NCBI GenBank assembly: GCA_030765065.1
Contig: CM060975.1
Span: 195,467,507 to 195,531,506, forward strand
Origin: Deroplatys truncata
Lineage: Eukaryota; Arthropoda; Insecta; Mantodea; Mantidae
DNA: 64,000 nt
Reading direction: 5' to 3'
How positions within the stretch are numbered: position 1 is the first letter of the stretch; every line of letters begins with the position of its first letter. The notes beneath the pieces are model-generated. The model did no database searches and was not told the DNA's origin. It saw only the letters and a list, made by a program, of their open reading frames with translations. This document shows positions 5,234 through 63,572 of this stretch, piece by piece. A program made the position numbers and the translations under genes.

Positions 5234-5884
5234 ACTTTCTCTACTACGTATAGTAAGTAGGGGAAGTATTGTATTCTACCCAAAAATTCGATACCGAGAT
5301 TTCACCGGAAATTCATGTTTTGAGACACCCTGAATTCAAAAAAAGCATTTTTGGAAACATGTCCGTGTGTGTGTCTGTGTGTGTGTGTGTGTGTGTGTGT
5401 CTGTGTGTGTGTGTGTCTGTGAACAGCATAACTCAAAAACGAACAGTCGGATAAACACCAAACTTGGTATTTAGGTTCAGTATCTTCCAGTGATGCGACA
5501 CGAAGCTTTTCAAGAAAATCCCCCCACCACAGAGTACCCTTTACATGGAACATTTTTGAAAATTTTAATTTTCTCAGAAATGGCTCTAACGATTTTGATT
5601 AAAATATCATATGTTTAAGATATTGTCATGACAAATAAACTGTATATCTTGAATTTTCTGGGAATGTCTCCAAAAGTATTCTTCATTGTGAACGACTTTT
5701 GGTAAACTGGTAAACCATAAGAGATAGACCAAATTTTACTACACAAAAGATGTAGATCGCGTTAAAATACACAATTTATGTCATATACATTTTTGTTGTT
5801 GAGTGAACCATTTTCGAGATATTGCTTGTATTCCCTTAAATTTTTCAATACTTTTCTCAAATGGGAATTCGTTATTCATTTTTT
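5234..5884 (+). mobile_element. HINE-like element, tandem unit a (5' portion)
   Basis: Starts at ACTTTCTCTACTACG and runs through the conserved core: ATTCGATACCGAGATTTCACCG, the CCAAAAA..TTTTTGG-type hairpin, a GT/TGTC microsatellite at 5364-5420, ACCAAACTTGGT and GGTAAACCATAAGAGATAGA. It stops at GGGAATTCGTTATTCATTTTTT, where the next unit starts. It therefore lacks the TGTCCTGG... 3' part and 3' stem-loop. It is non-coding; (GT)n-derived frames on either strand are not genes. Confidence 0.85.
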
Positions 5885-6532
5885 ACTTTCTCTACTACGT
5901 ATAGTAAGTAGGGGAAGTATTGCATTCCACCCAAAAATTCGATACCGAGATTTCACCGGAAATACATGTTTTGAGACCTCCTGAATCCAAAAAAAGCATT
6001 TTTGGAAACATGTCCGTGTGTGTGTCTGTATGTGTGTGTGTGTGTGTCTGTGTGTGTGTGTGTCTGTGAACAGCATAACTCAAAAACGAACAATCGGATA
6101 AACACCAAACTTGGTATTTAGGTTCAGTATCTTCCAGAGATGCGACACGAAGGTTTTCAAGAAAATTCCCCCAACCAGACTACCCTTTACATGGAAGATT
6201 TTTCGAAAATTTTAATTTTCTCAAAAATGGCTCTAACGATTTTGATTAAAATAACATATGTTTAAGATAATGTCATGAGAAATGAAATGTATATCTCGAA
6301 TTTTCTGGGAATGTCTCCAAAAGTATTCTTCATTGTGAACGACTTTTGCATAACTGGTAAACCATAAGAGATAGACAAAATTTTACTACACAAAAAATGT
6401 AGATCGCGTTAACATACACAACTTATGTCATATACATTTCTTTTGTTGAGTGAACCGTTTTCGAGATATTGCTTGTTATTTCCTTAAATTTTCCAATACT
6501 TATACTTTTTCTCAAATTCGTTATTCATTTTT
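5885..6532 (+). mobile_element. HINE-like element, tandem unit b (5' portion)
   Basis: A second head-to-tail copy of the same roughly 650-bp partial unit, with the microsatellite at 6015-6068. It ends at TTCGTTATTCATTTTT just before the next ACTTTCTCTACT start. It is closer to unit c than to unit a, sharing for example CCTCCTGAATCC and the spacing ACTTATACTTTTTCTC. Confidence 0.88.
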
Positions 6533-7433
6533 ACTTTCTCTACTACGTATAGTAAGTAGGGGAAGTATTGCATTCCACCCAAAAATTCGATACCGAGATT
6601 TCACCGGAAATACATGTTTTGAGACCTCCTGAATCCAAAAAAAGCATTTTTGGAAACATGTCCGTGTGTGTGTCTGTGTGTGTGTGTGTGTCTGTGTGTG
6701 TGTCTGTGTGTGTGTGTGTCTGTGTGTCTGTGAACAGCATAACTCAAAAACGAACAGTCGGATAAGCACCAAACTTGGTATTTACGTTCAGTATCTTCCA
6801 GAGATGCGACACGAAGGTTTTCAAGAAAATCCCCCCACCCCAGACTACCCTTTACATGGAAGATTTTTCGAAAATTTTAATTTTCTCAAAAATGGCTCTA
6901 ACGATTTTGATGAAAATATCATATGTTTAAGATAATGTCATGAGAAATGAAATGTATATCTCGAATTTTCTGGGAATGTCTCCAAAAGTATTCTTCATTG
7001 TGAACGACTTTTGCATAACTGGTAAACCATAAGAGATAGACAAAATTTTACTACACAAAAAATGTAGATCGCGTTAAAATACACAACTTATGTCATATAC
7101 ATTTCTTTTGTTGAGTGAACCGTTTTCGAGATATTGCTTGTTATTTCCTTAAATTTTCCAATACTTATACTTTTTCTCAAATTCGTTATTCATTTTTTTA
7201 TGTCCTGGACATGCAAAGAGAATGGAATGCGCCACATAGCAACCAGCGTTAAAATATTTGACTATCGCTTAAAAGCTACCATATTCCCCTTGCATCTACA
7301 TGAATATTACCAATAAGATTGACATCTCGATATCTCGATTAACATGAATCATATGGAGAATAAGCGTTTGTAAAATTAGATTGTACAAGAGTAGAGAAAG
7401 TCATGTGAGTGTAACACATCAGATTTTTTTATG
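6533..7433 (+). mobile_element. HINE-like element, tandem unit c (complete)
   Basis: A complete unit, used here as reference. The 5' inverted-repeat arm ACTTTCTCTACT is followed by the near-palindrome CTACTACGTATAGTAAGTAG. Then come core blocks, the microsatellite at 6664-6731, GAACCGTTTTCGAGATATTGCTTG and TTTATGTCCTGGACATGCAAAGAG. The 3' end holds GTACAAG, the 3' arm AGTAGAGAAAGT, a stem-loop ATGTG-AGTGTAA-CACAT, and CAGA. The 3' arm lies about 20 bp inside the end, so the inverted repeats are asymmetric, as in Helentron-type HINE/DINE-1 elements. No protein is encoded, so any Rep/helicase would be supplied in trans. Confidence 0.85.
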
Positions 7434-7664
7434 TCCTGGACATGCAAAGAGAATGGAATGCGCCACATAGCAACCAGCGTTAAAATATTTGACTATCGCT
7501 TAAAAGCTACCATATTCCCCTTGCATCTACAAGAAAATTACCAATAAGATTGACATCTCGATATCTCGATTAACATGAAGCATATGGAGAATAGGCGTTT
7601 CTAAAAATAGATTGTACAAGAGTAGAGAAAGTCATGTGAGTGTAACACATCAGATTTTTTGTCT
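7434..7664 (+). mobile_element. HINE-like 3' segment, tandem unit d
   Basis: A repeat of only the last 230 bp of the element, from TTTTTTATGTCCTGGACATGC to the 3' stem-loop and CAGA. It is nearly identical to the end of unit c, pointing to a recent tandem addition. Confidence 0.85.
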
Positions 7665-7932
7665 TGGATATGCAAAGAGTATTAATCTGTGGCAAAGGGA
7701 ATAGTGCTGCACCTAGCAACCAGCTATTAAGAGATATGTATGTGCTTAAAGGCTACTGTATTTCTATATTGCTCTTGTAAATATATATTCCCCTTACATC
7801 TACAAGAAAATTAGCAATAAGATAGAGTCTGCAAATGTTTATCTCGATTAAGATGAGGTAGATGGAGGTTAAGCGTTTGTAAAAATAGTTTGTACAAGAA
7901 TAGAGAAAGTCGTGTGAGTGTAACACATCAGA
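7665..7932 (+). mobile_element. HINE-like 3' segment, tandem unit e (variant)
   Basis: A third consecutive 3' segment from a divergent subtype. It has TCTTGGATATGCAAAGAGTATTAATCTGTGGC in place of TGTCCTGGACATG and an inserted TTGCTCTTGTAAATATATATTCCCC. It ends with AGAGTAGAGAAAGTCGTGTGAGTGTAACACATCAGA. Confidence 0.8.
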
Positions 7933-10184: not shown

Positions 10185-11039
10185 TCTGATGTGTTACACT
10201 CACATGACTCTTGTCTTGTACAAACTATTTTTACAAACGCTTATTCTCCATCTACTTCATGTTAATCCAGATAAACATTTACAGAAACTATTTTATTCCT
10301 AATCTTCTTATAAGTGCAAGGGGAATGTGGTAGGCTTTAAGCGAGAGTAAAATATTTTAAGAGTTGGTTGGAGCATTCCATTCTCTTTGTATGTCCAGGA
10401 CATAAAAAAATAAATACATAAAAAAAGAAGCGAATAACGAATTCCCATATGAGAAGAAGTATAAGTAATGGAAAATTCAAACAAATAACAAGGAAAATCT
10501 CGAAAATGGTTCATTCCACAAAAAACATGTATGACATAAATTTGTGTTTTAAAGAGAGCTGCATTTTTTGTGAAGAAAAATTTTGTCTATCTCTTACGGT
10601 TTACCAGTTATGCAAAAGCCATTCAGAAAGGACTTTTGGGGACATTCCCAGAAAATTGAAGATATATGTTTTATTTTTCATGAAAATATTTTAAATATAT
10701 GACATCTTAATCAAAATTGTTGGAGCCATTTTTCAGAAAATCAAAATTTTCCAAAAATTTTCCATATAAAGGCTATTCATTTATTCTGAGATTGGGAGAT
10801 TTTCTCGAAAACCTTCGTGTCGCATCTTAGAAATATACTGAACCTAAATATCAGTTTGGTATTTATCCGACTTTTCATTTCTGAGTTATGCTATTCAAAG
10901 TCGCACACATGGACCTTTTCCTAAAAGTGCTTTTTTGGATTCAGGGAGCCTCAAAGCATGTATTTCCGTGAAACCTTGGTATCGAATTTTTGGGTAGAAT
11001 ACAATACTTCCCCCACATACTATATGCAGTAAAGAAAGT
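10185..11039 (-). mobile_element. HINE-like element, minus strand
   Basis: Reads in reverse from TCTGATGTGTTACACTCACATGAC (3' stem-loop side) to the AAAGAAAGT 5' arm at 11039. The 3' arm lacks the central TCTCTACT (CATGACTCTTGTC), and the palindrome is degraded (CCACATACTATATGCAGT). The microsatellite is almost gone, reduced to GTCGCACACATGG near 10900. A run of six A precedes the TCTG end. An old copy. Confidence 0.82.
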
Positions 11040-12309: not shown

Positions 12310-13200
12310 ATTATACTTGCAACTTGCAACTCCTTTAGCACTCCTTCATTGTGTTTGTGGTCTCATGATGTATAGTCAACTGTTGAACGCATAAATCTCA
12401 TTCCATTAGTGGCTGCTTTGTTTTCAACTTTACTTTTCATTGTCCATGCCTCGCTACCATAAGACCAGTCCCGCTATAATCTTGTAGAGGCGTAGTTTAT
12501 ATGCCTCCACCGTACTCTTGAGGTTTTCATTGTGTTATCATCACCATGGTTCTGGTGTACCTAAAAATTTTATCTGGTATACCTACATCATCCACAAAGG
12601 ATTCTTATAGCCAAAATATCAAAATTAATTTACTTTTTCGAGTAGTTTATTTGTTAGACAGATTTTATCTGTCACAAAAGCATCAATTTTTTTATTTACA
12701 AATTTGTCCATCTCTCTGCCTCTATTTTTCTCCTTATTTCTCCCACTCTTTTTCCGTTTCTATTCTCTCAATCTCTTCCCTTCCATTTTAGTTGCCGAAC
12801 TTTATCCTCTGTCCAATTTAAATGCATGTAATGCTTTGAAAACAGGTGGTAAACTATTTTTCTAGACTTAAACAATTAAAACATTAGTAAAATGCTTAAG
12901 TCCACAGAATCCCTACTCTTCCTTAGGTTTGCCATGTAATTGAAACTCGTGGTAATCTGCGTGCACACAGGAATACTATTAAAAAAAAGTAGGTATAACA
13001 TCTTAAATATTCATTGTATGGAAATCATGTAAATTGAAAAACTTTTATAAACGTCATTCTTACAAACTTTTGTTGCATAACATATTTAAAAGGTTTGAAT
13101 AACAACGATCTTTTTTATTTTGAACACTAGAAACTCCCACCTTCCTGAGGTAGAATAGATGGCTAAGTTTTCGCTCGTTATTATTGATGTTTTACATTTA
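12310..13200. other. Unassigned AT-rich sequence
   Basis: No gene or named repeat recognised. A pyrimidine-rich tract lies at 12705-12790. Confidence 0.4.
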
Positions 13201-13204
13201 TATG

Positions 13205-14028
13205 GCATTCTCTACCCTCTATCGCTTACTAGTGGATATACCTACAAATTATTCTTATGAAAGTTTATTTTCCCGTCTATTTATTTTAATCGAGATAAAC
13301 TTTTCCGGAAGTAGCTGCCCACAGATTTCGTTATAGATACTAAAGGAATAGCGACAGTCAAATGTTTAAGATCTGGGCTCTATATGCTCGCCATAAAATA
13401 TCATACTCTTTTTATGACATGACAGAGAAACAACTGAAAATCGACAGGACTTAAAAATACCTAAGTGTTGAACAATTCGAACCATTAATTAAGGATACCT
13501 CGGAAATGGCTGATGCCACAAAAAAGTTATTTGAAATAAATGTGTGTAAAGAAATCTATATTTTTCGTGTAGTACGTTTTCGCTATCGCTTAACTTTTAC
13601 CTACCAGTTGCACAAGGTTGTACAAAATTTCTTCCAAATGAACAGAACTTCACAGGCTACTCCAAGAAAATTCAAAATATACATTTTCTTTATCCTGTAA
13701 ATATTTTCAATATGTGGTATTTTAATCAAAATCTTTATAGCCATTTTAAGAAAATAAATTTGATAAATGTTCCATGTGAAGGGTAGTTTGGGTAGATTAT
13801 CTTGAAAATCTTCGTGTCGCAGCTTTGAAAGATACTGAAGCGTTTTTGAGCTATGCTGTTCACACACATACACACGTACACACACAGAACCTGTTTCTAA
13901 AAATGCCTTTTTCGGGTTCGGTGGGCTTCAAAACATACATTTCCAGTGAAATCTCGACCTCGAATTTTTTTAGTAGAATACAATACTTCCCCTGCTTACT
14001 ATACATAGTAGAGAAAGTAAAAATGTAT
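13205..14028 (-). mobile_element. HINE-like element, older subfamily, minus strand
   Basis: Ends at the 5' arm TAGAGAAAGT (14019-14028) after CTGCTTACTATACATAGTAGAG. It carries ATTTTCGAGTTTCACCGG-type, ACCAGTTGCACAAGG and TCGTGTCGCAGC core blocks in reverse. The other end reads CTCTACCCTCTATCGCTTACTAGTGGATATACC. This marks a subfamily seen also at 19797-20664, 48433-49281 and 62456-62541. The terminal stem-loop is missing. Confidence 0.75.
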
Positions 14029-14364: not shown

Positions 14365-15178
14365 ACTTTCTCTAGTACGTATAGTCAATAAGGGAAGTGT
14401 TGCATTCCACCCAAAATTCGGTACCGAGATTTCACCGGAATACATATTTTGAAGCCCCCTGAATCCAAAAAAAAAACATTTTTGAAAACATGTCCTTGCC
14501 TGTCTGTCTGTGAACAGTATAACTCAGTATTTGAATTTAGTATCTTCCAAGGATGAGACACGAAAATTTCAAGAAAATTCCTTCACCCCTAACTGCCTTT
14601 TACATGAAATAGTTTTCAAAAATTTTGATTTTCTCAAAAATGGCTCTAATGATTTTTATTAAAATATATATGTTCAAGATATTTTCATGGCAAATAAAAT
14701 GCATATCTTGAATTTTCTAGGAATGTCCCCAAAAGTCCTCTTCATTCTGAATGACTTTCCATAACTGGTAAACGGTAAGAGAGACAAAAGTTTACTTCAC
14801 CAAAAATGTAAATCTCGTTAAAACACACAACTTATGCGACATACATTTGTTTTGTCGAGTGCACCATTTCCGACATATTCCTTGTTATTTGTTTGAATTT
14901 TCAAATACTTATATCTTTCTCAAATGAGAGTTCGTTATTCTTTTACGTCCTGGACATGCAAAGAGAATGAAATGCTCCACATAGCAAGCAGCTCTTAAAA
15001 GAATTGACTATCGCTTAAAGTTCTTGCACCTTATTCCCCTTGCACCTACGAGAAAATTAGCAATAACTTAGTTTCTACAAATGTTTATCTCTATTAACAT
15101 GAAGTAGATGAAGAATAAGCGTTTGTAAAAATAGTTTGTACAAGAGTAGAAAAAGTCATGTGAGTGCAACACATCAGA
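14365..15178 (+). mobile_element. HINE-like element, complete but diverged
   Basis: Starts ACTTTCTCTAGTACG in a T-run and ends TCATGTGAGTGCAACACATCAGA before TTTTT. The microsatellite has shrunk to CCTTGCCTGTCTGTCTG near 14495, and the CAAAAACGAACAGTCGG block is deleted. Both asymmetric arms and the 3' stem-loop remain. Confidence 0.85.
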
Positions 15179-19796: not shown

Positions 19797-20664
19797 TCTG
19801 ATACGTTACATTCACATGACTTTACCCTCTCTCGAGTATTAATGGATATAAAATATTCTTATTAAAGCTAATTTTTTGACTACTTAATTTTAACCGAGAC
19901 AAATCTTTGCAGAGGTAGCTACATTACAAATTTCGTTATAAATGCAAAGGAAATAGCGACAGTGAAATGTTTAAGAACTGGACGACTATATACAGATCTT
20001 AAAATTTCATACTATTTCCTTGCAACCGCGAGAAACAACGGAGTATTGACAGGACCTTAAAAGAATGACAAAGAATGCAACAATATAAATATTATTAACG
20101 GATACATCGATAATGGCTGATGCCAAAAAAAAGGTATTCGAAAAAAATTGTGTGTTTTAAAGATATTTGTGTGAGTTTTCGTCTATGTTTAACGTTTACC
20201 AGTTATAAAAGATTATAAAAAATTCCTTTTGAGGAGGATTTCACAGGCTATTCCCAGAAAATTCAAAATGTGAATTTTATTTGTCACGTAAATATCATTA
20301 ATATATGGCATTTTAATCAAAATCGATAGAGATATTTTCGAGAAAATAAAAAATGTTGACGAGCGTTTCATGTAAAGGGTAATTAGAGATGGCGGAATTT
20401 CCTTGAAAAGCTTCGTGACGCATCTTTGGAAGATACTGAACTTAAGTACCAAGTTTGGTATTTATCCAACTTTTTGTGTTTTAGTTATGCTGTTCGCATA
20501 CAAATACACTAGTACACGCAGGCACGGGCCTTTTTCTAAAAATGCTAATTTTAGATTCAGGGAGCTTCAAATGTGCATTTCCGGTAAATCTTCGTATCAA
20601 ATTCTTGGGTGAAAAGCAATAGGTATCTTACCCTTCTACCTACTCTGTACGTGGTAGAAAAAGT
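19797..20664 (-). mobile_element. HINE-like element, older subfamily, minus strand
   Basis: Reads TCTGATACGTTACATTCACATGACTTTACCC (3' stem-loop ATACGTTACATTCACAT, degraded) to GTGGTAGAAAAAGT. The internal variant TATTAATGGATATAAAATATTCTTATTAAAGC is shared with the 13205, 48433 and 62456 copies. The microsatellite remnant is ACAAATACACTAGTACACGC near 20500. Confidence 0.8.
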
Positions 20665-24293: not shown

Positions 24294-25005
24294 TTCTATA
24301 CCACTAAACATACATTAATATAAAATACGACAATAAGAAGTATATAATTTGTCTTTGATTAGACTACTCTCACTATAGGTTTTATACTTAATTTAACTAT
24401 ACTTTATTATTAATAGTGATGGCTAATTTGATTTGATTACCATTAAATTAAGTATCCTGATAAAATTTCAACTTCAAACTAAATAGTTAATTAAATTATT
24501 TCTACAGCGATTTATCTTGATTACTAAAAATCAGATAAAAAACTAAGCTTTTATAGAAATAGTTTGTAAAGCCAAGATAAATGATAGCGAATAGAGATAG
24601 TAATGTGAATGTAATACGAGCTCTTTCTTTAATGGTATTCCCTTATAAAAAAGCAATAAAATTAGCTAAACTAATACTGAAAGAAATACTTATTACTACT
24701 TACGTAATAACAACTTTTTTTATTTGCTTAAAACATATGAATAATGTTAAATGTGCACGAAACAATGTTTGAGTACGAAAATGTAAATTTTATTGTACAT
24801 GTTTTTGTATATTTTCGATTTTGTGTAATTGCATAATATTTAGAGAATGTCGTTAAAATTATACATATTTTCGATTTTTCACAGGAAAATGTTTAAGAAA
24901 TGTAATTGATTACGTATTTCAAAACAAATTAATAAAATAAAATAAAATAAAGCCTGAGACAATAAACGGCGAGCGGTAGGTATCGCATTTTCAAAGAGTT
25001 TCCGA
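24294..25005. other. Unassigned AT-rich sequence
   Basis: At 24545-24625 a weak match to the 3' end of the older HINE-like subfamily is visible (GCTTTTATAGAAATAGTTTGTA ... TAGAGATAGTAATGTGAATGTAATAC). The rest is unassigned. It may include the 5' untranslated part of the hAT that follows. Confidence 0.35.
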
Positions 25006-28770: not shown

Positions 28771-29292
28771 ACTTTCTCTACTACGTATAGTAAGTAGGGG
28801 AAGTATTGTATTCCACCGAAAAATTCCATACCGAGATTTCACCGAAATACATGTTCTGAGGCCCCCTGAATCCAAAAAAGCATTTTTAGAAACATGTCCG
28901 CGTGTGTGTGTCTGTGTGTCTATGAACAGCATAACTCAGAAACGAACAGTCGGATAAACACCAAACTTGGTATTTAGGTTCAGTATCTTCCAGAGATGCG
29001 ACACGTAGGATTTCAAGAAAATCCCCCCACCCCATATTATCCTTTACATGGAACATTTTTCGAAATTTTTAATTTTCTCAAAAATGGCTATAACGATTTT
29101 CATTAAAATATCATATGATTAAGATATTTTCATGACAAATGAAATGTATATCTCGAATTTTCTGGGAATGTCTCCAAAAGTATTCTTCATTGTGAACGAC
29201 TTTTGCATAACTGGTAAACCATAAGAGATAGACAAAATTTTACTCACAACAAATGTAAATCGCGTTAAAATTCACATTTTATGTCATATATT
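28771..29292 (+). mobile_element. HINE-like element, tandem unit (5' portion)
   Basis: Starts ACTTTCTCTACTACG; microsatellite at 28900-28920. It breaks off after AATTCACATTTTATGTCATATATT, where the next ACTTTCTC begins, about 130 bp earlier than in the 5.2-kb cluster. Confidence 0.85.
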
Positions 29293-30162
29293 ACTTTCTC
29301 TACTACGTATAGTAAGTAGGGGAAGTATTGCATTCCACCCAAAAATTCGATACCGAGATTTCACCGGAAATACATGTTTTGAGACTCACTGAATCCAAAA
29401 AAAGCATTTTTGGAAACATGTCCGTGTGTGCGTCTGTCTGTGTGTCTGTGTGTCTGTCTGTGTGTCTGTGAACAGCATAACTCAAAAACGAAGAGTCGGA
29501 TAAACACTAAACTTGGTATTTAGGTTCAGTATCTTCCAGAGATGCGACACGAAGGTTTTCAAGAAAATCCCCCCACCCCAGACTACCCTTTACATGGAAC
29601 ATTTTTCGAAAATTTTAATTTTCTCAAAAACGGCTCTAACGATTTTGATTAAAATATCATATGTTTAAGATATTGTCATGACAAATAAAATGTATATCTC
29701 GAATTTTCTGGGAATGTCTCCAAAAGTATTCTTCGTTATGAACGACTTTTTCATAACTGGTAAACCATAAGAGATAGACAAAATTTTACTACACGAAAAA
29801 TGTGGATCGCGTCAAAATACACAATTTATGTCATATACATTTCTTTTGTTGAGGGAACCGTTTGCGAGATATTGCTTGTTATTCCCTTAAATTTTCCAAT
29901 ACTTATACTTTTTCTCAAATTCGTTATTCATTTTTTTTATGTCCTGGACATGCAAAGAGAATGGAATGCGCCACATAGCAACCAGCGTTAAAATATTTGA
30001 CTATCGCTTAAAACCTACCATATTCCCCTTGCATCTACAAGAAAATTATCAATAAGATTGACATCTCGATATCTCCATTAACATGAAGCATATGGAGAAT
30101 AAGCGTTTGTAAAAATAGTTTGTACAAGAGTAGAGAAAGTCATGTGAGTGTAACACATCAGA
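29293..30162 (+). mobile_element. HINE-like element, complete
   Basis: A full unit with the 5' arm, the palindrome, a (TGTC)-type microsatellite at 29423-29469 and TTTTATGTCCTGGACATGC. It ends with the 3' arm AGTAGAGAAAGT, the stem-loop and CAGA, followed by a T-run. Confidence 0.88.
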
Positions 30163-30487
30163 TTTTTTTTTATTGTTGAGTGAACCATTTTCGAGATATT
30201 GCTTGTTATTCCCTTAATTTTCCAATACTTATACTTTTTCTCAAATTCGTTATTAATTTTTTTATGTCCTGGACAAGCAAAGAGAATGGAATGCGCCGCA
30301 TAGCAACCAGCTCTTAAAAGATTTGACCATCGCTTATAACCTACTATATTCCCCTTGTATCTACAAGAAAATTAGCAATAAGATTGACATCTCGATATCT
30401 CGATTAACATGAAGCATATGAGAACAACCGTTTATAAAATTAGTTTGTACAAGAGTAGAGAACGTCATGTGAGTGTAACACATCAGA
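30163..30487 (+). mobile_element. HINE-like 3' segment, tandem unit
   Basis: An extra 3' piece beginning TTGTTGAGTGAACCATTTTCGAG and ending AGTAGAGAACGTCATGTGAGTGTAACACATCAGA. Its start differs from the 3' segments at 7434, so the tandem additions do not share one breakpoint. Confidence 0.85.
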
Positions 30488-31961: not shown

Positions 31962-32130
31962 ATTCAATCTGCTACCATCTTCTATCTACTTCATGTTAAT
32001 TAGCATAAATTTTTGCAGAATTAGCCTCTCTAGACATTTCGTTGTAGATAGAAGGGATAATGGAATCCGGATCGATAGTCCGTGTTTGAAAGCTCGCTAT
32101 TGGCTTTAAAATTCATCTGTCATGTTTACA

Positions 32131-35603: not shown

Positions 35604-36481
35604 TCTGATGTGTTACACTCTCAGGACTTTCTCTACTCTTGTACAAACTATTTATACAACCGCTTATTCTCCATATGCTTCATGTTAATCGAGATATCGA
35701 GATGTTAATCTTATTGCTAATTTTCTTGTAGATGCAAGGGAAATTGCTAGCCTTTAAACGTTAGTAAAATATTTTAAGAGCTGGTTGCTATGTGGAGTAT
35801 TCCATTCTCTTTGCATTACCAGGACAAAAAAAATGAATAACGTATTTGAGAAAAAGTATGTATTGGAAAATTTAAGGGAATAGCAAGCAATATCTCGAAA
35901 ATGGTTCACCCAACAAAAAAAATGCATATGACATAAATTGTGTATTTTAACGCGATCTACATTTTTTGTGTAGTAAAATGTTGTCTATCTATGGTTTGCC
36001 AGTTATGCAAACGTCGTTCACAATGAATACTTTTGAAGACATCTCCAGAAAATTCAAGATATACATTTTATTTGTCATGAAAATATCTTAAACATACCTA
36101 TGATATTTTAATCAAACTCGTTAGAGCCATTTTTGAGAAAATAAAAGTTTTCGAAAAATGTTCCATATAAAGGGTAATCTGGGGTGGGGGGATTTTCTTG
36201 AAAACCTTCGTGTCGCATCTCTGGAAGATGCTGAACCTAAATACCAAGTTTGGTGTTTATCCGACTGTTCGTTTCTGAGTTATGTTGTTCACAGACAGAC
36301 AGACAGACAGACACACACACACACACACAAACACATACAGACACACACATGGACATGTTTCCAAAAATGCTTTTTTTGGATTCAGGGGGTCTCAAAACAT
36401 ATATTTCCGGTGAAATCTCGGTATCGAATTTTTGGGTGGAATACAATACTTCCCCTACTTACTACACGTAGTAGAGAAAGT
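35604..36481 (-). mobile_element. HINE-like element, complete, minus strand
   Basis: Runs from TCTGATGTGTTACACTC (preceded by AAAAAA) to TACACGTAGTAGAGAAAGT (followed by AAAAA). The 3' arm is GACTTTCTCTACTCTTGTAC. Microsatellite: CAGACAGACAGACAGACACACAC... at 36293-36349. The flanking A-runs on both sides fit insertion into a homopolymer. Confidence 0.88.
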
Positions 36482-37526
36482 AAAAAGGTAAGGTCACATC
36501 AAGACTCATTCCAAAGGGCAAGAAACAGGGAAAATCCAGGATCGCCACCAGTCGCAGAACGGAGGTAATTTGAAAGGTGAAGATCCATGACTCTGAACCA
36601 AATCTTGCAACTCAAAGGGCCATTGCACTGTAATTAGGGATCTTTGTTACTACTGTGAACACCATAATCAACCAGGATTTGAATCTAGAAAAGTACCATA
36701 AGAGCCGGGGGTATAAGCTGTTGCCTAACATATTGCAGAACGTGCCGCTAACAGCTGTATGAACGATACCTAGCTGGTGAAAAATGGATGGTTGTTTTTT
36801 TTTTTTTTTTTTTTTTAGCTGAGGCATATGTGACTGCAACAAATCCTGGGCTATATATTACCTACCAAGGGGAGAAAAAATTGAAACTAACGAAATTTTC
36901 CTCAATGGTTTCATTGTAAGAGCAAGGTACAGTTACGATGGCAAATTAACCATTTGACGCGTACATAAAATTGTGAAAATCAGCTCGGCATGTTATCAGA
37001 CCAACATCCTGATAAACTTTTCCATACAAAAATCCCTGCTCTCTATGGTGCAGATGTAAATAAAGTCTCCTTCAACCTACAAATTTTTGGAGCGACATCC
37101 GTGTTAAGTCATCTGATGCATCACTGATGGAGTTTTGTGCATTTGGGTTACCGAAAATGTGTGTGTGGTCCAATGATTAAAACCCAAAGTTTACTAGAAA
37201 GCCAACGACAAGCGAATACGAGTGAACACCATTGTCTATAGACAATAATATGTTTCAAAGGAAGGGCCTCCGATAAAACCACTGTGGTTAAGGTAGTGTA
37301 TAAATGGAACTTAAAAAAACAAAAGTAAAGTAGACAGAAGAATAAGCTTTTGTAGGAATAGTTTGTAGAAGACAGAGAATCATGTGAATACAAAATATCA
37401 GATTTTTCTCTAATGTATTGCTAGACACCACAGTCTTTGATAGTGTCAGAAACACTGTCTTTCTTCAAATCCTGTGTTTACTATACATTTAGCCATAAAC
37501 TCTGTAGACGCCTAACTAATTAGTAA
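36482..37526. other. Unassigned, with a short HINE 3' fragment
   Basis: 37335-37407 matches the HINE 3' end (ATAAGCTTTTGTAGGAATAGTTTGTA ... CATGTGAATACAAAATATCAGA). The plus frames at 36640-37140 vaguely recall a Tc1/mariner helix-turn-helix (INQDLNLEKYHKSRG) but are too decayed to call. A 21-T run lies at 36796-36816. Confidence 0.35.
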
Positions 37527-38207: not shown

Positions 38208-39044
38208 ACTTTCTCTACTACGTATAGTAAGTAGGGGAAGCATTGTATTCCACCTAAAAATTCGATATCGAGATTTCACCGGAAATACATGTTTTGAGGA
38301 CCCTGAATCCAAAAAAAGCATTTTTGGAAACATGTCCGTGTGTGTGTATGTCTGTGAACAGCATAACTCAGAAACGAACAGTCGGATAAAACCAAACTTG
38401 GTATTTAGGTTCAGCATCTTCCAGAGATGCGACACGAAGGTTTTCAAGAAAATCCCCACAACCCAGATTACCCATTACATGGAACATTTTTCGAAAATTT
38501 TAATTTTCTCAAAAATGGCTCTAACGATTTTGATTAAAATGTCATATGTTTAAGATATTTTCATGACAAATGAAATGTATATCTCGAATTTTCTGGGAAT
38601 GTCTCCAAAAGTATTCTTCATTGTGAACGACTTTTGCATAACTGGTAAACCATAAGAGATAGACAAAATTTTACTACACAAAAAATGTAGATTGCGTTAA
38701 AATACACAATTTATGTCATATACATTTGTTTTGTTGAGTAAACCATTTTCGAGATATTGCTTGTTATTCCCTTAAATTTTCCAATACTTATACTTTTTCT
38801 CAAATTCGTTATTTATTTTTTTGTCCTGGTAATGCAAAGAGTATGGAATACTCCACATAGCAACCAGCTCTTAAAATATTTGACTATAGCTTAAAGCCTA
38901 CCAAATCCCCTAGCATCTACAAGAAAATTAGCAATAAGATTGACATCTCGATATCTCGATTAACATGAAGCATATGGATATTAAGCGTTTGTAAAAATAG
39001 TTTGTACAAGAGTAGAGAAAGTCATGGGAGTGTAACACATCAGA
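38208..39044 (+). mobile_element. HINE-like element, complete
   Basis: Starts ACTTTCTCTACTACGTATAGTAAGTAG and has a very short microsatellite (38336-38352). The 3' variant TTTTTTGTCCTGGTAATGCAAAGAGTATGGAATACTCC is shared with 47216-48064. It ends AGTAGAGAAAGTCATGGGAGTGTAACACATCAGA before a T-run. Confidence 0.88.
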
Positions 39045-41007: not shown

Positions 41008-41417
41008 GACCAAAGATGACAATGATTTGATGGCTTTGGCCAATGAAATGCGAGTATTCACAGTGTGTCACGAAATCTGCAACATGGCTCAAAGCGAAAA
41101 GTAAACAAAAATGGCTACCCGGCCAAGGTATGTCGTATGCGAACTGATTAGGTTATACATAAGCTGACCATGGGTGGTATTAATAAAAGCGAGCCGTGAC
41201 TCATGAGCCATGTCTTGTAGCATAACCGATTCGTCGGTAGCAGCGAGTCGGGAATCACAGATTTAGTATTAATAAAAACTTCCCCTCCGTACTGAGCCTT
41301 GGCTCTATGATTGCGAGTCTCTGACTCTGTTTCCCCTCTTCCTGATAACAAATGCATTATTGTCGAGTGGCAGTAAACATTCGATTCAGTATGGCAGTAT
41401 ATCCATCAGAAATGACG
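41008..41417. other. Unassigned sequence
   Basis: Nothing recognised. Confidence 0.35.
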
Positions 41418-42054: not shown

Positions 42055-42490
42055 ACTCATTACCCAAAAATTCGGTTTCGGGATTTCATAGGAAATCTTT
42101 CTTGAAGTTCCCTGAATAAAAAAAGGACGTTTTAGAAAAGTGATGTGTGTGTATGTGTCTGTAAACAGCATAACGTGAAAACGAAGATAAGTGGATAATT
42201 ACCAAACTTAGTATTTAAGTTTAGCATTTTCCAAGGATGCAACGAAAATTTTCAAACAGTGCCGTTATTCTTCATTTTTAAAGAAATTCTCTAATGAAAA
42301 CGCATTAAAATTCTCAAATTCTGATATAAGTAAAATGCAAATCTTGGGTTTTCTGTGAATATCCTGTGGTTTCCTACATTCTTATTGGATTTTGTATAAT
42401 GTTTTACAACTAGGAAACCTTAGATAAGAGATAGACAAAGCTTGCTAGAGAAAAAATGTAGAACTCATTATGATACGGTAATTTGTATCA
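42055..42490 (+). mobile_element. HINE-like element, internal fragment
   Basis: ACCCAAAAATTCGGTTTCGGGATTTCATAGG, AAAAAGGACGTTTTAGAAA, a short GTGTGTGTATGTGTCTG tract, AACAGCATAACGTGAAAACGAAG, ACCAAACTTAGTATTTAAG and AGATAAGAGATAGACAAAG appear in family order. Both ends are missing. Confidence 0.7.
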
Positions 42491-47215: not shown

Positions 47216-48064
47216 ACTTTCTCTTCTTCGTATAGTAAGTAGGGGAAGTATTGCATTCCACCCAAAAATTCGATACCAAGATTTCACCGGAAATACATGT
47301 TTTGAGGTCTCCTGAATCCAAAAAAACGTATTTTTGGAAACATGCCCGTGTGTGTGTGTGTGTGTGTGTCTATGAACAGCATAACTCAGAAACGAACAGT
47401 CGGATAAACACCAAACTTGGTATTTAGGTTTAGTATCTTCCAGAGATGCGACACGAAGGTTTTCAAGAAAATCCCCCCACCCAGATTACCCTTTACATGG
47501 AACATTTTTCGAAAATTTTAATTTTTTCAAAAATGGCTCTAACGATTTTGATTAAAATATAATATATTTAAGATACCTTCATGACAGATAAAATGTATAT
47601 CTTGAATTTTCTGGGAATGTCTCCAAAAGCGTTCTTCATTGTGAACGACGTTTGCATAACTGGTAAACCATAAGAGATAGACAAACTTTTACTACACAAA
47701 AAATGTAGATCGCGTTAAAATACACAATTTATGACATATACATTTTTTTTGTTGAGTGAACCATTTTCAAGATATTGCTTGTTATTCCCTTAAATTTTGC
47801 AATACACTGTTCTCAAATGGGAATTCGTTATTCATTTTTTTTGTCCTGGTAATGCAAAGAGAATGGAATACTCCACATAGCAACCAGCTCTTAAAATATT
47901 TGTCTATCGCTTAAAGCCTACCAATTCCCCTTGCATCTACAAGAAAATTAGCAATAAGATTAACATCTCGATATCTCGATTAACATGAAGCACATGGAGA
48001 ATAAGCGTTTGTAAAAATAGTTTGTGCAAGAGTAGAGAAAGTCATGTGAGTGTAACACATCAGA
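47216..48064 (+). mobile_element. HINE-like element, complete
   Basis: Starts ACTTTCTCTTCTTCGTATAGTAAGTAG in a T-run. Short (GT)n at 47349-47371. 3' variant TTTTGTCCTGGTAATGCAAAGAG as in 38208-39044. It ends AGTAGAGAAAGTCATGTGAGTGTAACACATCAGA plus a T-run. Confidence 0.88.
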
Positions 48065-48432: not shown

Positions 48433-49281
48433 ACATTCTCTACTATATCCATAGTAGGTATAGAATATATTGCACCCCTCTCAAGAAATTCGATACCGAT
48501 TTCACCGGAAATATGTGTTAAGGCTCCCGGAATCCAAATAAAGTATTTTTGGAAACATGCTCGTGTGTGTGTATGTAAGTCTGTGAACAACATAGCTCAG
48601 AAACGAAAAGTCAGATAAATACCAAACTTGGTATATGAGTTCACTTTCTTCAAAATTTTGAAGAAAATTCTTCACCTTCAACTACCCTTTACATGTAATG
48701 TTTTTCGAAATTTTTTATTTTCTAAAAACTGGCCCTAAACGATTTTGATTAAAACACTACATAGGAAAGAATTTACATGGCAAATAAAATGTATACCATG
48801 AATTTTCTGTGAACAGCCTGGGAAGGCCTCTTCATTCGGAAGGATTTTGTATAATCATGTATGGCTAGCAAACATTAAGCGATGGACAAAACGTACCACA
48901 CAAAAAATATAGATCTCATTAAACACAGAATTTATTTAAAAAAAGTTTTTGTTGCATAAGCCGTTTCTGAGATATACTTTATTAAAGGTTCGAATTGTTC
49001 AATCCTTCTTTTTAAGTCCCATTGATTTTCAGTTGTTTCTCGCGATTGCATGGAAAGAGTATGGAATTTTAAGGCCAGCTTATAGCGTCCAGTTCAACAT
49101 TTGACCATCTCTGTTCTCTTTGTATCTACACACATAATGAAATGTGTAATGTACTATTTTTGCAAAGGTTCATTTGGATTAAAATGCATTAGATAGAAAA
49201 ATAAATTTTAATAAGAATAGATTGTATACCCACTAATAAAGATAGAGCGTAGAGAAATTCTTGTAAATGTATCACATCAGA
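48433..49281 (+). mobile_element. HINE-like element, older subfamily, complete
   Basis: Starts ACATTCTCTACTATATCCATAGTAGG (palindrome altered but still self-complementary) and ends TAGAGAAATTCTTGTAAATGTATCACATCAGA. It carries the subfamily marker TTTTAATAAGAATAGATTGTATACCCACTAATAAAGATAGAG. Core blocks ACCAAACTTGGT and GGCAAATAAAATGTATACC are conserved. Confidence 0.83.
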
Positions 49282-52190: not shown

Positions 52191-52317
52191 GCTATTTTGG
52201 CGGAGTTAATTCCTTTTCTTTAATGCCTGGAAATTCCTATACCTGGTTTGTGACGTTCTAAAATAAGGAATTGTCACTCGTATGAATAAAGACAGCTTGT
52301 GGACCCTTTTATAAAAT

Positions 52318-52425
52318 GGTTTTAGTTGGTTCAGGGGTCTCAAAACATGCAATTACGGTGAAATCTCAATACCAAATCTTGTGTAGAATACCTCTACCTA
52401 CTTAAGGTAAGCGGTAAAAAATGTA
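52318..52425 (-). mobile_element. HINE-like element, 5'-end fragment, minus strand
   Basis: GTTCAGGGGTCTCAAAACATGCAATTACGGTGAAATCTCAATACC, TGTAGAATACC and CTACCTACTTAAGGTAAGCGG are the reversed first 105 bp of the family. The terminal arm is degraded (TAAAAAATGT). Confidence 0.65.
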
Positions 52426-57355: not shown

Positions 57356-59250
57356 TTCTACATAGTCTCCTTTCAGCTCGATACCTGCTTATAGTGAGAA
57401 CCGTCGTGTTCTGCAAAATAGCCATCAACTGCAGACTCCACCTCTTCATTGTTGGCAAATCTTTTACCACCAAGTCATTTCTTGAACTTTGTAAACAGAA
57501 AATAATCTGACGGGGCTAAATCTGGCGAATAGGGTGCATGAGGAAGCAATTTGAACTTTAACTCATTGATTTTGGCCATGGCGATAATGGATGTGTGAAC
57601 TGGTGCATTGTCTTGATGAAACAAAACGTTCTTTTTCGCTAAATGCGGCCGTTTTTGCTTGATTTCATCATTCAAACGCTGCAATAAGTTCGCATAATAC
57701 TCGCCATTGATTGCTTTTCCTTTTTGAAGATAATCGATGAAAATTATCCCATGCGCATCCCAAAAAACTGACGTCATGACCTTGCCTGCAGATGGAACTG
57801 TTTTCGCCTCCTTTGGAGCTGATTCTCCCCTTTCAATCCACTGTTTTGACTGTTCCTCGTCTCAGGTGTGAAGTGATGGACCCATGTTTCATCCATGGTT
57901 ATGAATCGACGCAAAACTCTGCTTTATTGCAGCGAAACATCGCCAAACACTCAACTGAAACATCTTCGCGACGCTGTTTTTTACTTTCTCTACTACGTAT
58001 AGTAAGTAGGGGAAGTATTGCATTCCACCCAAAAATTCGATACCGAGATTTCGCCGGAAATACATGTTTTGAGACCTCCTGAATCCAAAAAAAGAATTTT
58101 TGGAAACATGTCCGTGTGTGTGTCTGTGTGTGTGTGTGTGTGTGTGTGTCTGTGTGTGTGTCTGTGTGTGTGTGTGTGTCTGTGTGTGTGTCTGTGAACA
58201 GCATAACTCAAAAACGAACAGTCGGATAAACACCAAACTTGGTATTTAGGTTCAGTATCTTACAGAAATGCGACACGAAGGTTTCCAAGAAAATTCCCCC
58301 ACCCCAGACTACCCTTTACATGGAAGATTTTTCGAAAATTTTAATTTTCTCAAAAATGGCTCTAACGATTTTGATGAAAATATCCTATGTTTAAGACAAT
58401 GTCATGAGAAATGAAATGTATATCTCGAATTTTCTGGGAATGTCTCCAAAAGTATTCTTCACTGTGAACGACTTTTGCATAACTGGTAAACCATAAGAGA
58501 TAGACAAAATGTTACTACACAAAAAATGTAGATCGCGTTAAAATACACAACTTATGTCATATACATTTCTTTTGTAGAGTGAACCGTTTTCGAGATATTG
58601 CTTGTTATTTCCTTAAATTTTCCAATACTTATACTTTTTCTCAAATTCGTTATTCAATTTTTTTATGTCCTGGACATGCAAAGAGAATGGAATGCGCCAC
58701 ATAGCAACCAGCGTTAAAATATTTGACTATCGCTTAAAAGCTACTATATTCCCCTTGCATCTACAAGAAAATTACCAATAAGATTGACATCTCGATATCT
58801 CGATTAACATGAAGCATATGGAGAATAAGCGTTTGTAAAATCAGATTGTACAAGAGTAGAGAAAGTCATGTGAGTGTAACACATCAGATTTTTTTCCTTG
58901 TAAGTGTGCACAGTTTTCGCATGTCAAATTTTCAGTCAGTATGCAATGCACAGCACTTTTTTAAATTCCCACGATGTCTGCTAGCTCGCGCACTCTCAGT
59001 CGACCGTCATCTAATACCATTTTGTGGATTTTCTTCACAATTTCTGGCGTGGTCACCTCATTTGGTGACTGCGATGTTCGTCTTGGCAACTCGTACTACC
59101 TCGCTTAAACTCTGCCACCCAATATTTTACTGTTGTAAACGAAAGAGCAGTCTCCCCCAGAGTTGTATCTAACTCAGCTTTAATATTAGTTGGACTAATA
59201 CCTTTGAAATGAAAGTATTGTATCACATAACGATGATCAATTTTATCCAT
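57356..59250 (-). pseudogene. Mariner transposase, D,D34D type, split and frameshifted
   Basis: The start is taken as MDKIDHRYVIQYFHFKG at 59250. The N-terminal paired helix-turn-helix (TVKYWVAEFKRG, then RVRELADIVG and HCILTENL) runs to about 58895. After the HINE the frame resumes with QRREDVSVECLAMF. Catalytic motifs follow: MDETWVHHFTPE near 57885, HQDNAPVHTS near 57610, YSPDLAPSDYFLF near 57520. The two last Asp are separated by exactly 34 residues. Then come FKK-stop-LGGKRFANNEEVESAV and, near 57356, GDYVEN. Besides the insertion there are point stops and frameshifts, so it is dead. Confidence 0.88.
57983..58888 (+). mobile_element. HINE-like element inserted in mariner transposase
   Basis: A complete copy: ACTTTCTCTACTACG..., the longest microsatellite of the window (58111-58196), the full core, and ending AGTAGAGAAAGTCATGTGAGTGTAACACATCAGA. 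Both junctions lie in a T-run that was a lysine-rich A-run in the transposase gene (before CAGCGTCGCGAAG on the minus strand). This is the best evidence for the element's exact ends and for insertion without a distinctive target duplication beyond T residues. Confidence 0.92.
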
Positions 59251-60078
59251 TTTATCCTCGTACTTACTGGAGATGTAATTGAGAAGCACATTGTGTGAAG
59301 CCATTACAAAGTTATCATCTTTTGGGGGACAAGGCTTTCGAAAGTGTTTATGTAAGCCATGAAAACTCTTAATACAAAAGTAAAGAACGTGCATGTTTTT
59401 AAAAATGGACAACAATACAGTTCCAAGTGTCATTTTGGTGTGGCTTGCATAAATAAATAGAGACATATTAATTCAATTTGCTTTCAATTAATTCTAACCA
59501 CGAATCTGTTTTTGCTGCAGTCTGACTGACTTTATTCCGGTTTTTGAAATATTCCTGAAGGGTAACCAGTCAAATTACACAGCTAACGTTTTAAATAGAG
59601 GTAACCAATTTTTTTACAATCTGATTGATTGTTTTTTTACAATTTTTGATAGATTTTTACAATCTAACCAGTCAAATTACGCAACCAATTTTTTTCCTCT
59701 GGCTCACTCCGACATCTTTATGATATGCCTGAAGGGTAACCAGTCAAATTACACAGTTAACGTTTTCATACAGCTAACCAATTCTTTTACAACCTAATTT
59801 ACTCTATTCCGGAATTTTTAATATGCCTGAAGGGTAACCGGCAAATTACAGAATGGATGTTTCATTAATAACTAGTTGGGTTTTTTGTAAAAAGACTGAA
59901 TTCACAATTTGCCTGCGACATATACATTATCGATTGCGTTGCTTGCAACCAGGATATTCGTATTTCTCAGATAAAAGATAAAGATTCCTCCGAGCTTCAT
60001 ATTCATGGAGGACATGAATGAATTTTGAAGCTTTTTGTTCTTTCTTTTGCTCGTTAAATGTGATTAACAACGTATTGC

Positions 60079-61610: not shown

Positions 61611-62455
61611 TCTGATGTGTTACTCTCACATGACTTTCTCTACTCTTGTACAAACTATTTTTACAAACTCGTATTCTCAATCTATTTCATATTAATCGAG
61701 ATAAACATTTGCAGAAACGATCATATTGCTAATTCTCTTTTAGGTGCAAGGGGAATATGGTAGGCTTTAAGCGATAGTCAAATTCTTTAAGAGCTGGTTG
61801 CTATGTGGAGCATTCCATTTTCTTTGCATGCTTAGGACATACAAAATGAAAAGAAAGAAAAACAAAACGAATAACAAATTCCCATTTGAGAAAAAGTATT
61901 GGAAAATTCAAACAAATAACAAGGAATATGTCGGAAATGGTTCCCTGCACACAAAAAATGTATATAACATAAATTCTGTGATTTGTGGTAAAATTTTGTA
62001 TATCTCTTACGGTTTACCAGTTATGCAAACTTCATTCAGAATGAAGACGACTTTTGGGGACATTCCTACAAAATTCTAGATATGCCTTTCATTTGCATTG
62101 AAAGTGTCTTAAAATATTATATTTGGATCAAAATCGTTAGTGCCATTTCTGAGAGAAAAAAAACTTCGAAAAATGTTCCATGTAAAGGGTAGTCTGGAAT
62201 GGGGAGAATTTCTTGAAAACCTTCGTGTCGCATCTTTTAAAGTTGCTGAACTTAAATACCAAGTTTGGTATTTATACGACTTTTCGTTTTTGAGTTACGC
62301 TGTTCACAAACACATAAACACACACACGGGCCTTTTTTTAAAAATGCTTTTTTTTTGCATTATGGGGCTTCAAAACATGTATTTCCGGTGAAATCTCAAT
62401 ATCGAATTTTTAGGTGAAACGCAATATTTCTACTTACTATACGTATTAGAGAAAG
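61611..62455 (-). mobile_element. HINE-like element, complete, minus strand
   Basis: From TCTGATGTGTTACTCTCACATGACTTTCTCTACTCTTGTAC (preceded by AAAAAA) to TACGTATTAGAGAAAGT. The microsatellite has decayed to ACACATAAACACACACACGG. Core blocks are in order. Confidence 0.87.
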
Positions 62456-62541
62456 TAATAAGCTTAAGTAACAATACTTTGTATACCCATTAATAAACGA
62501 TAGAGGGTAGGGAAAGTAATGTGAATGTATCACATCAGAAT
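62456..62541 (+). mobile_element. HINE-like 3' end, older subfamily
   Basis: ATAAGCTTAAGTAACAATACTTTGTATACCCATTAATAAACGATAGAG then GGAAAGTAATGTGAATGTATCACATCAGA. It directly abuts the 5' arm of the preceding minus-strand copy. Confidence 0.75.
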
Positions 62542-62786
62542 TTTTTTTCTTCTAGTTTACTGCTTTGCTGGAAACACGTGCTGCCTCACTTGTACCTCAA
62601 TTTTAGCCTTATCGAGTGCACTTCCGCTCGTTAATCACACCTTGCTTTATCCACATACATCAGTACTTCCGTTCGTATATAATCATATCTTTGCTTTCTG
62701 TGTTTTGGTTTTCGGTATCCTTGCTTGTATTACAAATATAATTTTGATTGTTATTACGTTCTCATTTCTCTTACGCCCACAGAATA
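62542..62786. other. Unassigned sequence
   Basis: No gene or repeat recognised; the 102-codon plus frame here is hydrophobic but has no motif. Confidence 0.35.
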
Positions 62787-63572
62787 TTTTTTTATGTTCT
62801 TCACATGCAAAGGGAATTAGATTTTACACATAACGACTAGTTCTAAAAATATTTGACTATCGCTTAAGGCTTACTATGTTCTCCTTGTTTTGTATTTGCA
62901 AGGGAAATTTAGAAATACAGTAGCCTTTAAGCATAGACATATCTCTAAATAGCTGGTTGCTATGTGCAGCTCCATTCTCTTTGCCACAGATTAATATTCT
63001 TTGCACATCCAAGACAAAAAAATGAATAACGAATTCCCATTTGAGAAAAAGTATAAGTATTGGAACATTTAAGGGTATAACAAGCATTATTTCGAAAATG
63101 GTTCACTCCACAACAACAAAAAATGTATATGACATAAATTGTGTATTTTAACGCGATCTACATTTTTTGTGTAGTAAAATTTTGCGTATCTCTTATGATT
63201 TACCAGTTATGCAAAAGTCGTTCACAATGAAGAATACTTTTGGAGACATTCCCAGAAAATTCGAGATATACAATTCATTTGCCATAAAAATGTTTTAAAC
63301 TTATGGCATTTTATTAAAAAGCGTTAGAGCCATTTTAGAGAAAATTAAAATTTTCGAAAAATGTCCCTTATCAAGGGTTATCTGGCGTGGGGGGATTTTC
63401 TTGAAAACCTTCGTGTTGCATCTCTGTAAGATACTGAATCTAAATACCAAGTTTGGTGTTTATCCGACACACACACGGACATGTTTCCAAAAATATTTTT
63501 TTTTGGATTCAGTAGGCCTCAAAACATGCATTTCCGGTGAAATCTCGGTATCGAATTTTTTAGTGGAATGCA
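62787..63572. mobile_element. HINE-like inverted pair
   Basis: 62787-62900 is a plus-strand 3'-region fragment (TTTTTTATGTTCTTCACATGCAAAGGG ... TTTGACTATCGCTTAAGGC). From about 62901 to 63572 the same family continues on the minus strand (GTAGCCTTTAAGC, TAGCTGGTTGCTATGTGCAG, CACATCCAAGACAAAAAAATGAATAACG, through to TTTCCGGTGAAATCTCGGTATCGAATTTTTTAGTGGAATGCA). The 5' terminal palindrome and arm are missing. Confidence 0.78.

What the first reader, a model, noticed from the sequence alone, without database searches (positions are those of the whole stretch)
5234..63572. Abundant HINE/Helentron-like non-autonomous family, about 20 copies in 64 kb
Seen: complete copies share a 5' end ACTTTCTCTACT, an inverted 3' partner AGTAGAGAAAGT about 20 bp inside the 3' end, a terminal stem-loop ATGTG..CACAT plus CAGA, an internal GT/TGTC microsatellite, and T-runs on both sides. 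Known: asymmetric terminal inverted repeats, a 3' stem-loop, a microsatellite and T|T insertion are the marks of Helentron-derived HINE/DINE-1 elements. Inferred: this is such a family, making up about a quarter of the window, mobilised by an unseen Helentron.
Basis: partly seen in the sequence, partly recalled or inferred. Interest (0 to 1): 0.85.

Follow-up and report, generated by a model that had tools for sequence, protein, structure and literature searches.

The report
Helentron-driven repeat family, partner found
The window is rich in a short non-coding jumping-DNA family of a known kind, and a search of the same genome found a very large number of its ends together with a few dozen copies of a protein-coding element that shares those ends and probably moves it.

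Summary
In detail: 27 near-exact copies of the 12-bp subterminal repeat (0.43 expected), ten complete elements of 814-906 bp plus nested and broken ones, 23% of the window. All ten lie between T-runs with at most 2 bp duplicated beyond the Ts. The 'unseen' partner was found: 66 sites of one Rep sequence. The copy read in full has a 2,387-aa frame with tegument-like protease, Rep, PIF1 helicase and endonuclease, and the Helentron signature RGSPH. Its 5' subTIR is identical, and its last 33 bp are 91-94% identical to window copies. So this is a HINE family with its Helentron. Ten of 11 Helentron copies examined carry a HINE 5' half stacked before their own 5' end, and five of 11 abut the HINE 3' half at one internal T-run, where HINEs also nest in each other (14,769 exact junctions, 69,831 empty sites). 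Stacked 5' ends from self-insertion were already proposed for Fusarium Helitrons. The kind is known; the family appears new, but was not checked against Repbase/Dfam.

The parts
1..65 (-). decayed 5' end cut by the window edge
5234..5884 (+). 5' half of the outermost HINE of a three-deep nest (3' remnant 7655-7932)
5885..6532 (+). 5' half of the middle HINE of the nest (3' half 7424-7654)
6533..7423 (+). complete innermost HINE, 891 bp
7424..7654 (+). 3' half of the middle HINE
7655..7932 (+). 3' remnant of the outermost HINE; its start matches the Helentron 5' region (88% over 134 bp)
10185..11039 (-). complete diverged HINE, 855 bp (77% to consensus)
13185..14018 (-). divergent (type B) copy with decayed 3' end; 3' limit set by eye
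14365..15178 (+). complete diverged HINE, 814 bp (78% to consensus)
19797..20664 (-). divergent (type B) copy; 3' limit set by eye
24590..24623 (+). decayed 3' end
28771..29292 (+). 5' part of a HINE interrupted by the next copy
29293..30162 (+). complete HINE, 870 bp, nested in 28771/30167
30167..30487 (+). 3' part of the interrupted HINE
35604..36481 (-). complete HINE, 878 bp
37339..37400 (+). isolated 3' end
38208..39044 (+). complete HINE, 837 bp
42062..42476 (+). internal fragments
47216..48064 (+). complete HINE, 849 bp
48433..49281 (+). complete type B copy, 849 bp
52313..52424 (-). 5' fragment
57983..58888 (+). complete HINE, 906 bp, inside a mariner transposase gene
61611..62456 (-). 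complete diverged HINE, 846 bp (78% to consensus)
62506..62539 (+). type B 3' end
62787..63572 (-). piece matching Helentron positions 37-862 (83%), past position ~674 where the main HINE consensus stops aligning to the Helentron

Best explanation
The repeats are HINEs: non-autonomous rolling-circle elements of the Helentron group, with a DINE-1-like layout. They are most likely mobilised in trans by a Helentron that is present in the same genome and shares their ends. Shown: shared ends, coding content of the partner, T-run targets, lack of duplication beyond the Ts, copy numbers. Inferred: that the Helentron protein recognises the common 5' subTIR/IR and 3' subTIR/hairpin; that its endonuclease nicks T-runs (proposed by Thomas et al.); that a strand is peeled from a 5' end to the first 3' end met (proposed for Fusarium Helitrons in PMC5148889) and copied into the target.
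For: Anatomy with chance controls. 284,682 5' ends and 285,292 3' ends in the genome, 0 in reversed-pattern controls. Helitron_like_N in the own genome: 152 matches, with 150 of 291 candidates scored. Of the 30 loci kept, ten form a 96-99% identical group, five of them in open frames above 2,000 aa. One copy read in full has a 2,387-aa frame with Herpes_teg_N 5.3e-10, DUF6570 4.8e-17, Helitron_like_N 1.7e-28, PIF1 6.8e-27, Exo_endo_phos_2 1.3e-5. RGSPHEH in 10 of 10 of this group; in the other 20 loci the motif could be read in seven, all RGLPHAH. HINE consensus 2-674 matches the Helentron 5' end at 92%; the last 33 bp match window copies at 91-94%. 55 of 66 Rep sites have the Helentron 3' end downstream on the same strand, 49 of them within 4,350-4,483 bp. 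A HINE in a mariner, with 40 of 40 scored paralogous sites uninterrupted (4,388 candidates).
Against: Helentron and main HINE type share only ~33 bp at the 3' end; the last 60 bp are 69% identical, under the 80% that Thomas et al. ask of one subfamily. The endonuclease match is under Pfam's curated cut-off (25.5 vs 27.4 bits), and that region found only a chance match among solved structures. The 3' stem is weak in three of the four window copies folded. No RPA gene was recognised. 11 of 66 Rep sites had no Helentron 3' end within 20 kb. No movement was observed.
Confidence: 0.95

Rival explanations
1. MITE: deletion derivative of a cut-and-paste DDE transposon.
For: Short, abundant, inverted repeats near both ends. 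DINE-1 was presented as a MITE in 2008 (PMC2374699, start of abstract seen in a listing).
Against: Asymmetric ends; at most 2 bp duplicated beyond Ts; the coding partner found is a Rep-helicase. The one palindromic ~11.8-kb repeat read that carries HINE modules has no frame above 130 aa. A DDE element with these ends was not sought genome-wide.
Confidence: 0.01
2. Derivative of a canonical Helitron rather than a Helentron.
For: A Helitron-type group (RGLPHAH) is also in this genome.
Against: T-run targets, the subTIR pair and the CAGA end do not fit the TC...CTRR ends and A|T insertion that Thomas et al. give for Helitrons. The element found with the same ends has the S-type signature. Full-length RGLPH copies were not read, so their ends were not compared directly.
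Confidence: 0.03
3. Retroposon (SINE-like) on the opposite strand, with an A-tail.
For: Reverse-complemented, most 5' ends read AGT plus an A-run.
Against: A-runs at both ends and nothing over 2 bp duplicated beyond them; near-equal numbers of 5' and 3' ends genome-wide; a coding partner with the same ends.
Confidence: 0.01
4. For the nested ladders only: 5'5'5'...3'3'3' arrays come from slippage or end-bypass replication, not from insertion of one copy into another.
For: Stacked 5' halves of near-constant length occur, and some Helentron units have two 5' ends and one 3' end. Thomas et al. mention bypass arrays for Helitrons.
Against: Junctions lie at T-runs, and the paired halves in the window rejoin to sites seen empty in other copies. 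Nested 5' and 3' junctions are similar in number (14,769 and 13,005). C4b and the copy 29293 sit at other T-runs of a HINE. Self-insertion is the reading given for Fusarium Helitrons (PMC5148889, passages).
Confidence: 0.2

Closest known systems
HINE families of Metaseiulus occidentalis and Culex (Thomas et al. 2014, PMC4067079; parts 1-4 of 8 of the main section and passages seen)
   Same: SubTIRs of 12-15 bp, 3' palindrome, T-rich targets without target modification, variable number of Ts, microsatellites, no coding, Helentron partner with shared ends
   Different: Here the 5' subTIR has the DINE-1-type flanking inverted repeat; the main HINE and the Helentron share only ~33 bp at the 3' end; about 285,000 ends in one genome
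DINE-1 of Drosophila (Yang and Barbash 2008, PMC2374699; passages)
   Different: No DINE-1 sequence was compared here; 334-6,297 copies per species in that paper (by its own search criteria) against about 285,000 ends here
Composite Helitrons with several 5' termini and one 3' terminus in Fusarium oxysporum (PMC5148889; passages)
   Same: Self-insertion, stacked 5' ends with a single 3' end, explained there by nicking at the leftmost 5' end and stopping at the first 3' end
   Different: There the duplicated 5' piece is typically under 200 bp and there is no endonuclease domain; here it is a ~640-670-bp HINE 5' half in front of a Helentron with open-frame copies
Helentrons (Rep-helicase-endonuclease elements)
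   Same: Rep with RGSPH signature, PIF1 helicase, C-terminal endonuclease match; an N-terminal protease-like domain (Thomas et al. name OTU proteases; here Pfam names Herpes_teg_N)
   Different: No RPA gene recognised; in 10 of 11 copies examined a HINE 5' half is stacked ahead of the element's own 5' end

Membership tests
HINE / DINE-1-like | 12-15 bp subterminal inverted repeats, 3' copy inside the 3' end | tested here: met
   12 bp; 27 places at up to 1 mismatch vs 0.43 expected; the 3' copy starts 34 bp before the end of CAGA
HINE / DINE-1-like | Short palindrome near the 3' end | tested here: inconclusive
   ATGTG..CACAT is in the 3' ends, but of four window copies folded only 62506 beats its shuffles (z -2.6); the others gave -0.9, -0.9 and -0.02
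HINE / DINE-1-like | Partial inverted repeat beside the 5' subTIR (DINE-1 type) | tested here: met
   AGTAGGGGAAGT in the main type, 10 of 12 complementary; hairpin z -3.2. Altered in several diverged copies
HINE / DINE-1-like | Insertion in TT/T-rich sites without target duplication | tested here: met
   10 of 10 complete window copies between T-runs, 0-2 bp duplicated beyond T; nested and mariner empty sites. A net gain of about 4-5 T cannot be told from a T-run duplication
HINE / DINE-1-like | No coding capacity; microsatellite inside | tested here: met
   Longest listed frame overlapping a copy is 143 aa; five frames overlapping copies gave no Pfam match better than E 0.05; microsatellite
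HINE / DINE-1-like | Autonomous Helentron with the same ends (at least 11 identical bp of subTIR = same family, Thomas et al.) | tested here: met
   5' subTIR 12 of 12, 3' subTIR 11 of 12 identical
[quoted passage not shown]
   69% for the main HINE type; 68% and 75% for two type B ends
Helentron | Rep (Helitron_like_N) with S in RG(S)PHxH | tested here: met
   E 1.7e-28; RGSPHEH in 10 of 10 group-2 loci. The nearby triplet reads YQR where Thomas et al. list F/Y, w/l/y/k, R: only a partial fit
Helentron | PIF1-type helicase in the same ORF | tested here: met
   PF05970 6.8e-27
Helentron | C-terminal AP-type endonuclease | tested here: met
   PF14529 E 1.3e-5 over profile positions 2-117 of 117, but 25.5 bits against a cut-off of 27.4; region open and nearly identical in 5 of 5 further copies; no relative among solved structures
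Helentron | RPA gene (listed by Thomas et al. among additional ORFs) | tested here: not met
   No frame of 80 aa or more outside the main ORF region in the copy read; an additional gene, not treated as required
Helentron / HINE | Rolling-circle movement by the element's own protein | not testable with these tools
   needs experiment

The most novel reading that the evidence does not exclude
The amplifying autonomous Helentron is a composite whose working front end is a recently acquired 5' half of its own non-autonomous HINE: it starts at that outer HINE 5' end and stops at its own 3' end. In addition, Helentrons and HINEs strongly favour one internal T-run of HINEs as target, so that HINEs act as landing pads that keep generating such composites.
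Probability: 0.5. Interest if true: 0.5.

Novelty: new member of a known kind. Interest (0 to 1): 0.42.

Why it matters
It gives a matched pair in one genome: a Helentron with open-frame, nearly identical copies, and a HINE family of about 285,000 ends. For oyster HINEs the authors could not relate any autonomous Helentron to them (PMC7492417, passages). The pair makes Helentron questions testable: how T-runs are chosen, which ends are used in nests, and how 66 coding sites relate to thousands of times more non-coding copies. The stacked-end mechanism itself was already proposed in Fusarium (PMC5148889); here it would apply to a Helentron with a full HINE half as front end.

Tried and rejected
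Rejected: MITE, retroposon and canonical-Helitron readings (see rivals). Viral-contig scans with the 3' end and with the core, and one genome-contig scan with the core, found nothing. tRNA and Rfam searches of the window found nothing. A text search of papers for core and end sequences found three papers that look unrelated by title. I suspected from recall that the internal core resembles that of Drosophila DINE-1; not tested. My first reading, that H1's upstream HINE half was merely its target, was revised when further copies showed the same outer module. The expectation that the outer-inner junction would be specific to the Helentron failed: 3,206 places against 66 Rep sites; the one set examined lies in a palindromic repeat. 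The ten Helentron copies besides H1 were taken from the long-frame rows, not at random; 11 of about 66 were examined, and only H1 end to end. Phmmer of the endonuclease region gave a chance match only. Host species not identified.
Full report
Observation. With one mismatch allowed, the 12-bp subterminal repeat occurs 27 times against 0.43 expected, and the 34-bp 3' end with three mismatches 12 times against none in 100 shuffles. Ten complete copies of 814-906 bp start with ACTTTC or ACATTC after at least two Ts and end in CAGA before at least five Ts; beyond the T-runs the flanks share 0-2 bp. Loci L001-L008 were drawn by a 14-base pattern. Of 20 subTIR matches in them, which include 3' ends read in reverse, 8 were paired automatically with a 3' end, at least one probably wrongly; in these eight the duplication beyond T was 0-1 bp. 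The consensus alone covers 21% of the window, and 23% with a type B copy and the Helentron ends added; the reversed window gave no match to the consensus.

Next to the 5' subTIR of the main type is an imperfect inverted copy, AGTAGGGGAAGT, which folds with it (z -3.2). Yang and Barbash describe such a partial inverted repeat and a GTCY-rich microsatellite for DINE-1 (passages); Thomas et al. say that mite HINEs lack it. So the layout is DINE-1-like. The 3' stem is weak: z -0.9 for two main-type copies, -0.02 and -2.6 for two type B ends. There are at least two sequence types, A and a more diverged B. Frames overlapping the copies reach 143 aa, and five of them have no convincing Pfam match.

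Nesting and empty sites. The cluster 5234-7932 reads as three elements inserted one into another at the same internal T-run: three 5' halves, then three 3' parts. The interrupted T-run has 5+7 Ts in one case and 6+6 in the other, against 7 or 8 in five copies where the site is empty. Copy 29293 sits at another T-run of copy 28771. Copy 57983 interrupts a mariner transposase gene. A query joining its two flanks matched 40 of 40 scored places (4,388 candidates) without interruption, at 83-87% identity. Six were aligned: the HINE lies in a short T-rich stretch and no other duplication is seen, but at this divergence the exact junction is uncertain. The net gain of about 4-5 Ts in the nested cases may belong to the element or be a T-run duplication.

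Genome-wide count. The window lies in an unnamed 4.29-Gb genome. A 34-base 5' end with up to three mismatches occurs at 142,111 + 142,571 places, and a 36-base 3' end at 141,869 + 143,423; both reversed-pattern controls are zero. At ~870 bp each this would be near 250 Mb or 6% of the genome, an estimate that assumes full-length copies. Some of these ends belong to a tandem array with a ~3.4-kb unit near one end of contig C1.

The autonomous partner. Helitron_like_N gave 152 matches, with 150 of 291 candidates scored. The 30 loci kept fall into groups. One group of ten is 96-99% identical; five of the ten lie in open frames above 2,000 aa. One copy (H1, C10:233,545,800-233,564,299) was read in full: a 2,387-aa frame with a tegument-like protease domain, DUF6570, Rep, PIF1 helicase and a C-terminal endonuclease match. 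The endonuclease score is under Pfam's cut-off but spans the profile, and the region is open and nearly identical in five further copies. The Rep motif is RGSPHEH in 10 of 10 of this group; of the other 20 loci it could be read in seven, all RGLPHAH. By the criterion of Thomas et al. the first is Helentron type, the second Helitron type. The group's Rep 40-mer occurs 66 times and its 3' end 81 times; 55 of 66 Rep sites have that 3' end downstream within 20 kb on the same strand, 49 of them within 4,350-4,483 bp.

Shared ends. The Helentron's own 5' subTIR is identical to that of the HINE, with 92% identity over ~670 bp; its last 33 bp match window copies at 91-94%. By Thomas et al.'s rules this is one family (11 or more identical subTIR bases) but not one subfamily (69% over the last 60 bp). 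No Helentron body was detected in the window, but 62787-63572 matches Helentron positions 37-862 at 83%.

A composite autonomous element. I read the ends of ten more copies, named here by contig: C8, C13a, C5, C4a, C9, C1, C10b, C3, C4b, C13b. In ten of the 11 (all but C3) the Helentron's own 5' end is preceded by a HINE 5' half with a shared variant (CAAATGCG). C3 has a plain, more diverged HINE half there and may be an older form inserted in a HINE. Nine outer halves were measured (C8's was not): they differ by 0.2-2.2% from each other, and H1's is 0.5% from window copy 6533. Outer and inner halves of one element differ by 5.6-7.3%, except 3.3% in C13a. Six copies run from the outer 5' end to the Helentron's own 3' end and then leave the HINE 3' half behind: C9 and C1 with no HINE match in the 5' sequence fetched upstream; C10b beside a diverged minus-strand HINE stretch; C4b inside a minus-strand HINE; C4a and C13b directly after another HINE's 3' end, C13b also with HINE sequence downstream. 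So the unit that moves most likely starts at the outer HINE 5' end and stops at the first 3' end. The same event, self-insertion followed by nicking at the leftmost 5' end and stopping at the first 3' end, was proposed for Fusarium Helitrons with several 5' termini (PMC5148889, passages). Cut-and-paste is not excluded by this alone. A caution: the same outer-inner junction exists at 3,206 places, and the one set examined belongs to a palindromic repeat, so the junction is not unique to the Helentron and its origin is not settled.

A favoured target. In five of 11 Helentron copies (H1, C8, C13a, C5, C3) the 3' end is followed by the HINE 3' half, cut at the same internal T-run as in the window's nest; C8, C13a and C5 also have an extra plain HINE 5' half upstream. 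Those target halves differ by 2.2-3.1%, while the outer halves of C13a and C5 differ by 0.7% and the inner halves of C8 and C13a by 0.0%, which favours separate insertions. H1 may be a moved composite and not an independent hit. Genome-wide, exact patterns give 14,769 nested 5' junctions, 13,005 nested 3' junctions and 69,831 empty sites. These counts include nests copied as a unit, so they are not numbers of insertions. Binomial estimates for 4 of 10 copies at such a site run from 8e-7 to 1.5e-3 for assumed shares of T-runs of 0.8-5.5%; these shares are rough, and the copies were not a random sample.

Conclusion. HINEs, Helentrons and self-insertion composites are known kinds; the family, its size, the HINE-fronted Helentron and the shared T-run target are what this report adds.

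Noticed in passing
L073 + L074 (G000:C1:13832500-13844800): A near-perfect ~11.8-kb palindrome (99.6% self-inverted), longest frame 126 aa, with ~76-bp tandem repeats and HINE modules in its arms. Sets of four junction hits at many places on C1 suggest that it is dispersed; only one was read, and an assembly artefact is not excluded.
   Followed up: partly
L062 (G000:C1:20000-24500); hits C1:20511-119396: HINE 3' ends about 3.4 kb apart near one end of contig C1; the unit repeats at 99% identity and contains a HINE, so a HINE seems to have become part of a long satellite.
   Followed up: partly
57475-59472: Mariner transposase remnants (PF01359 and HTH_48) on the minus strand, split by the HINE at 57983-58888; other mariner copies exist in the genome.
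   Followed up: yes
27683-28090: Open frame with a weak match to Effector-associated domain 8 (24.3 bits, cut-off 27).
   Followed up: no
4424-5007, 31501-31962, 37550-38095, 41413-41917 and shorter stretches: A second dispersed repeat family, up to about 500 bp, 69-77% identical between copies, found after masking HINE matches.
   Followed up: no
L009-L019: A Helitron-type group, about 89-97% identical between loci, in the same genome; RGLPHAH could be read in six of these eleven loci, and most matches contain stops.
   Followed up: partly
15297-15473 and 32127-32230: A two-copy 90-bp tandem repeat and a 26-copy TACA array.
   Followed up: no
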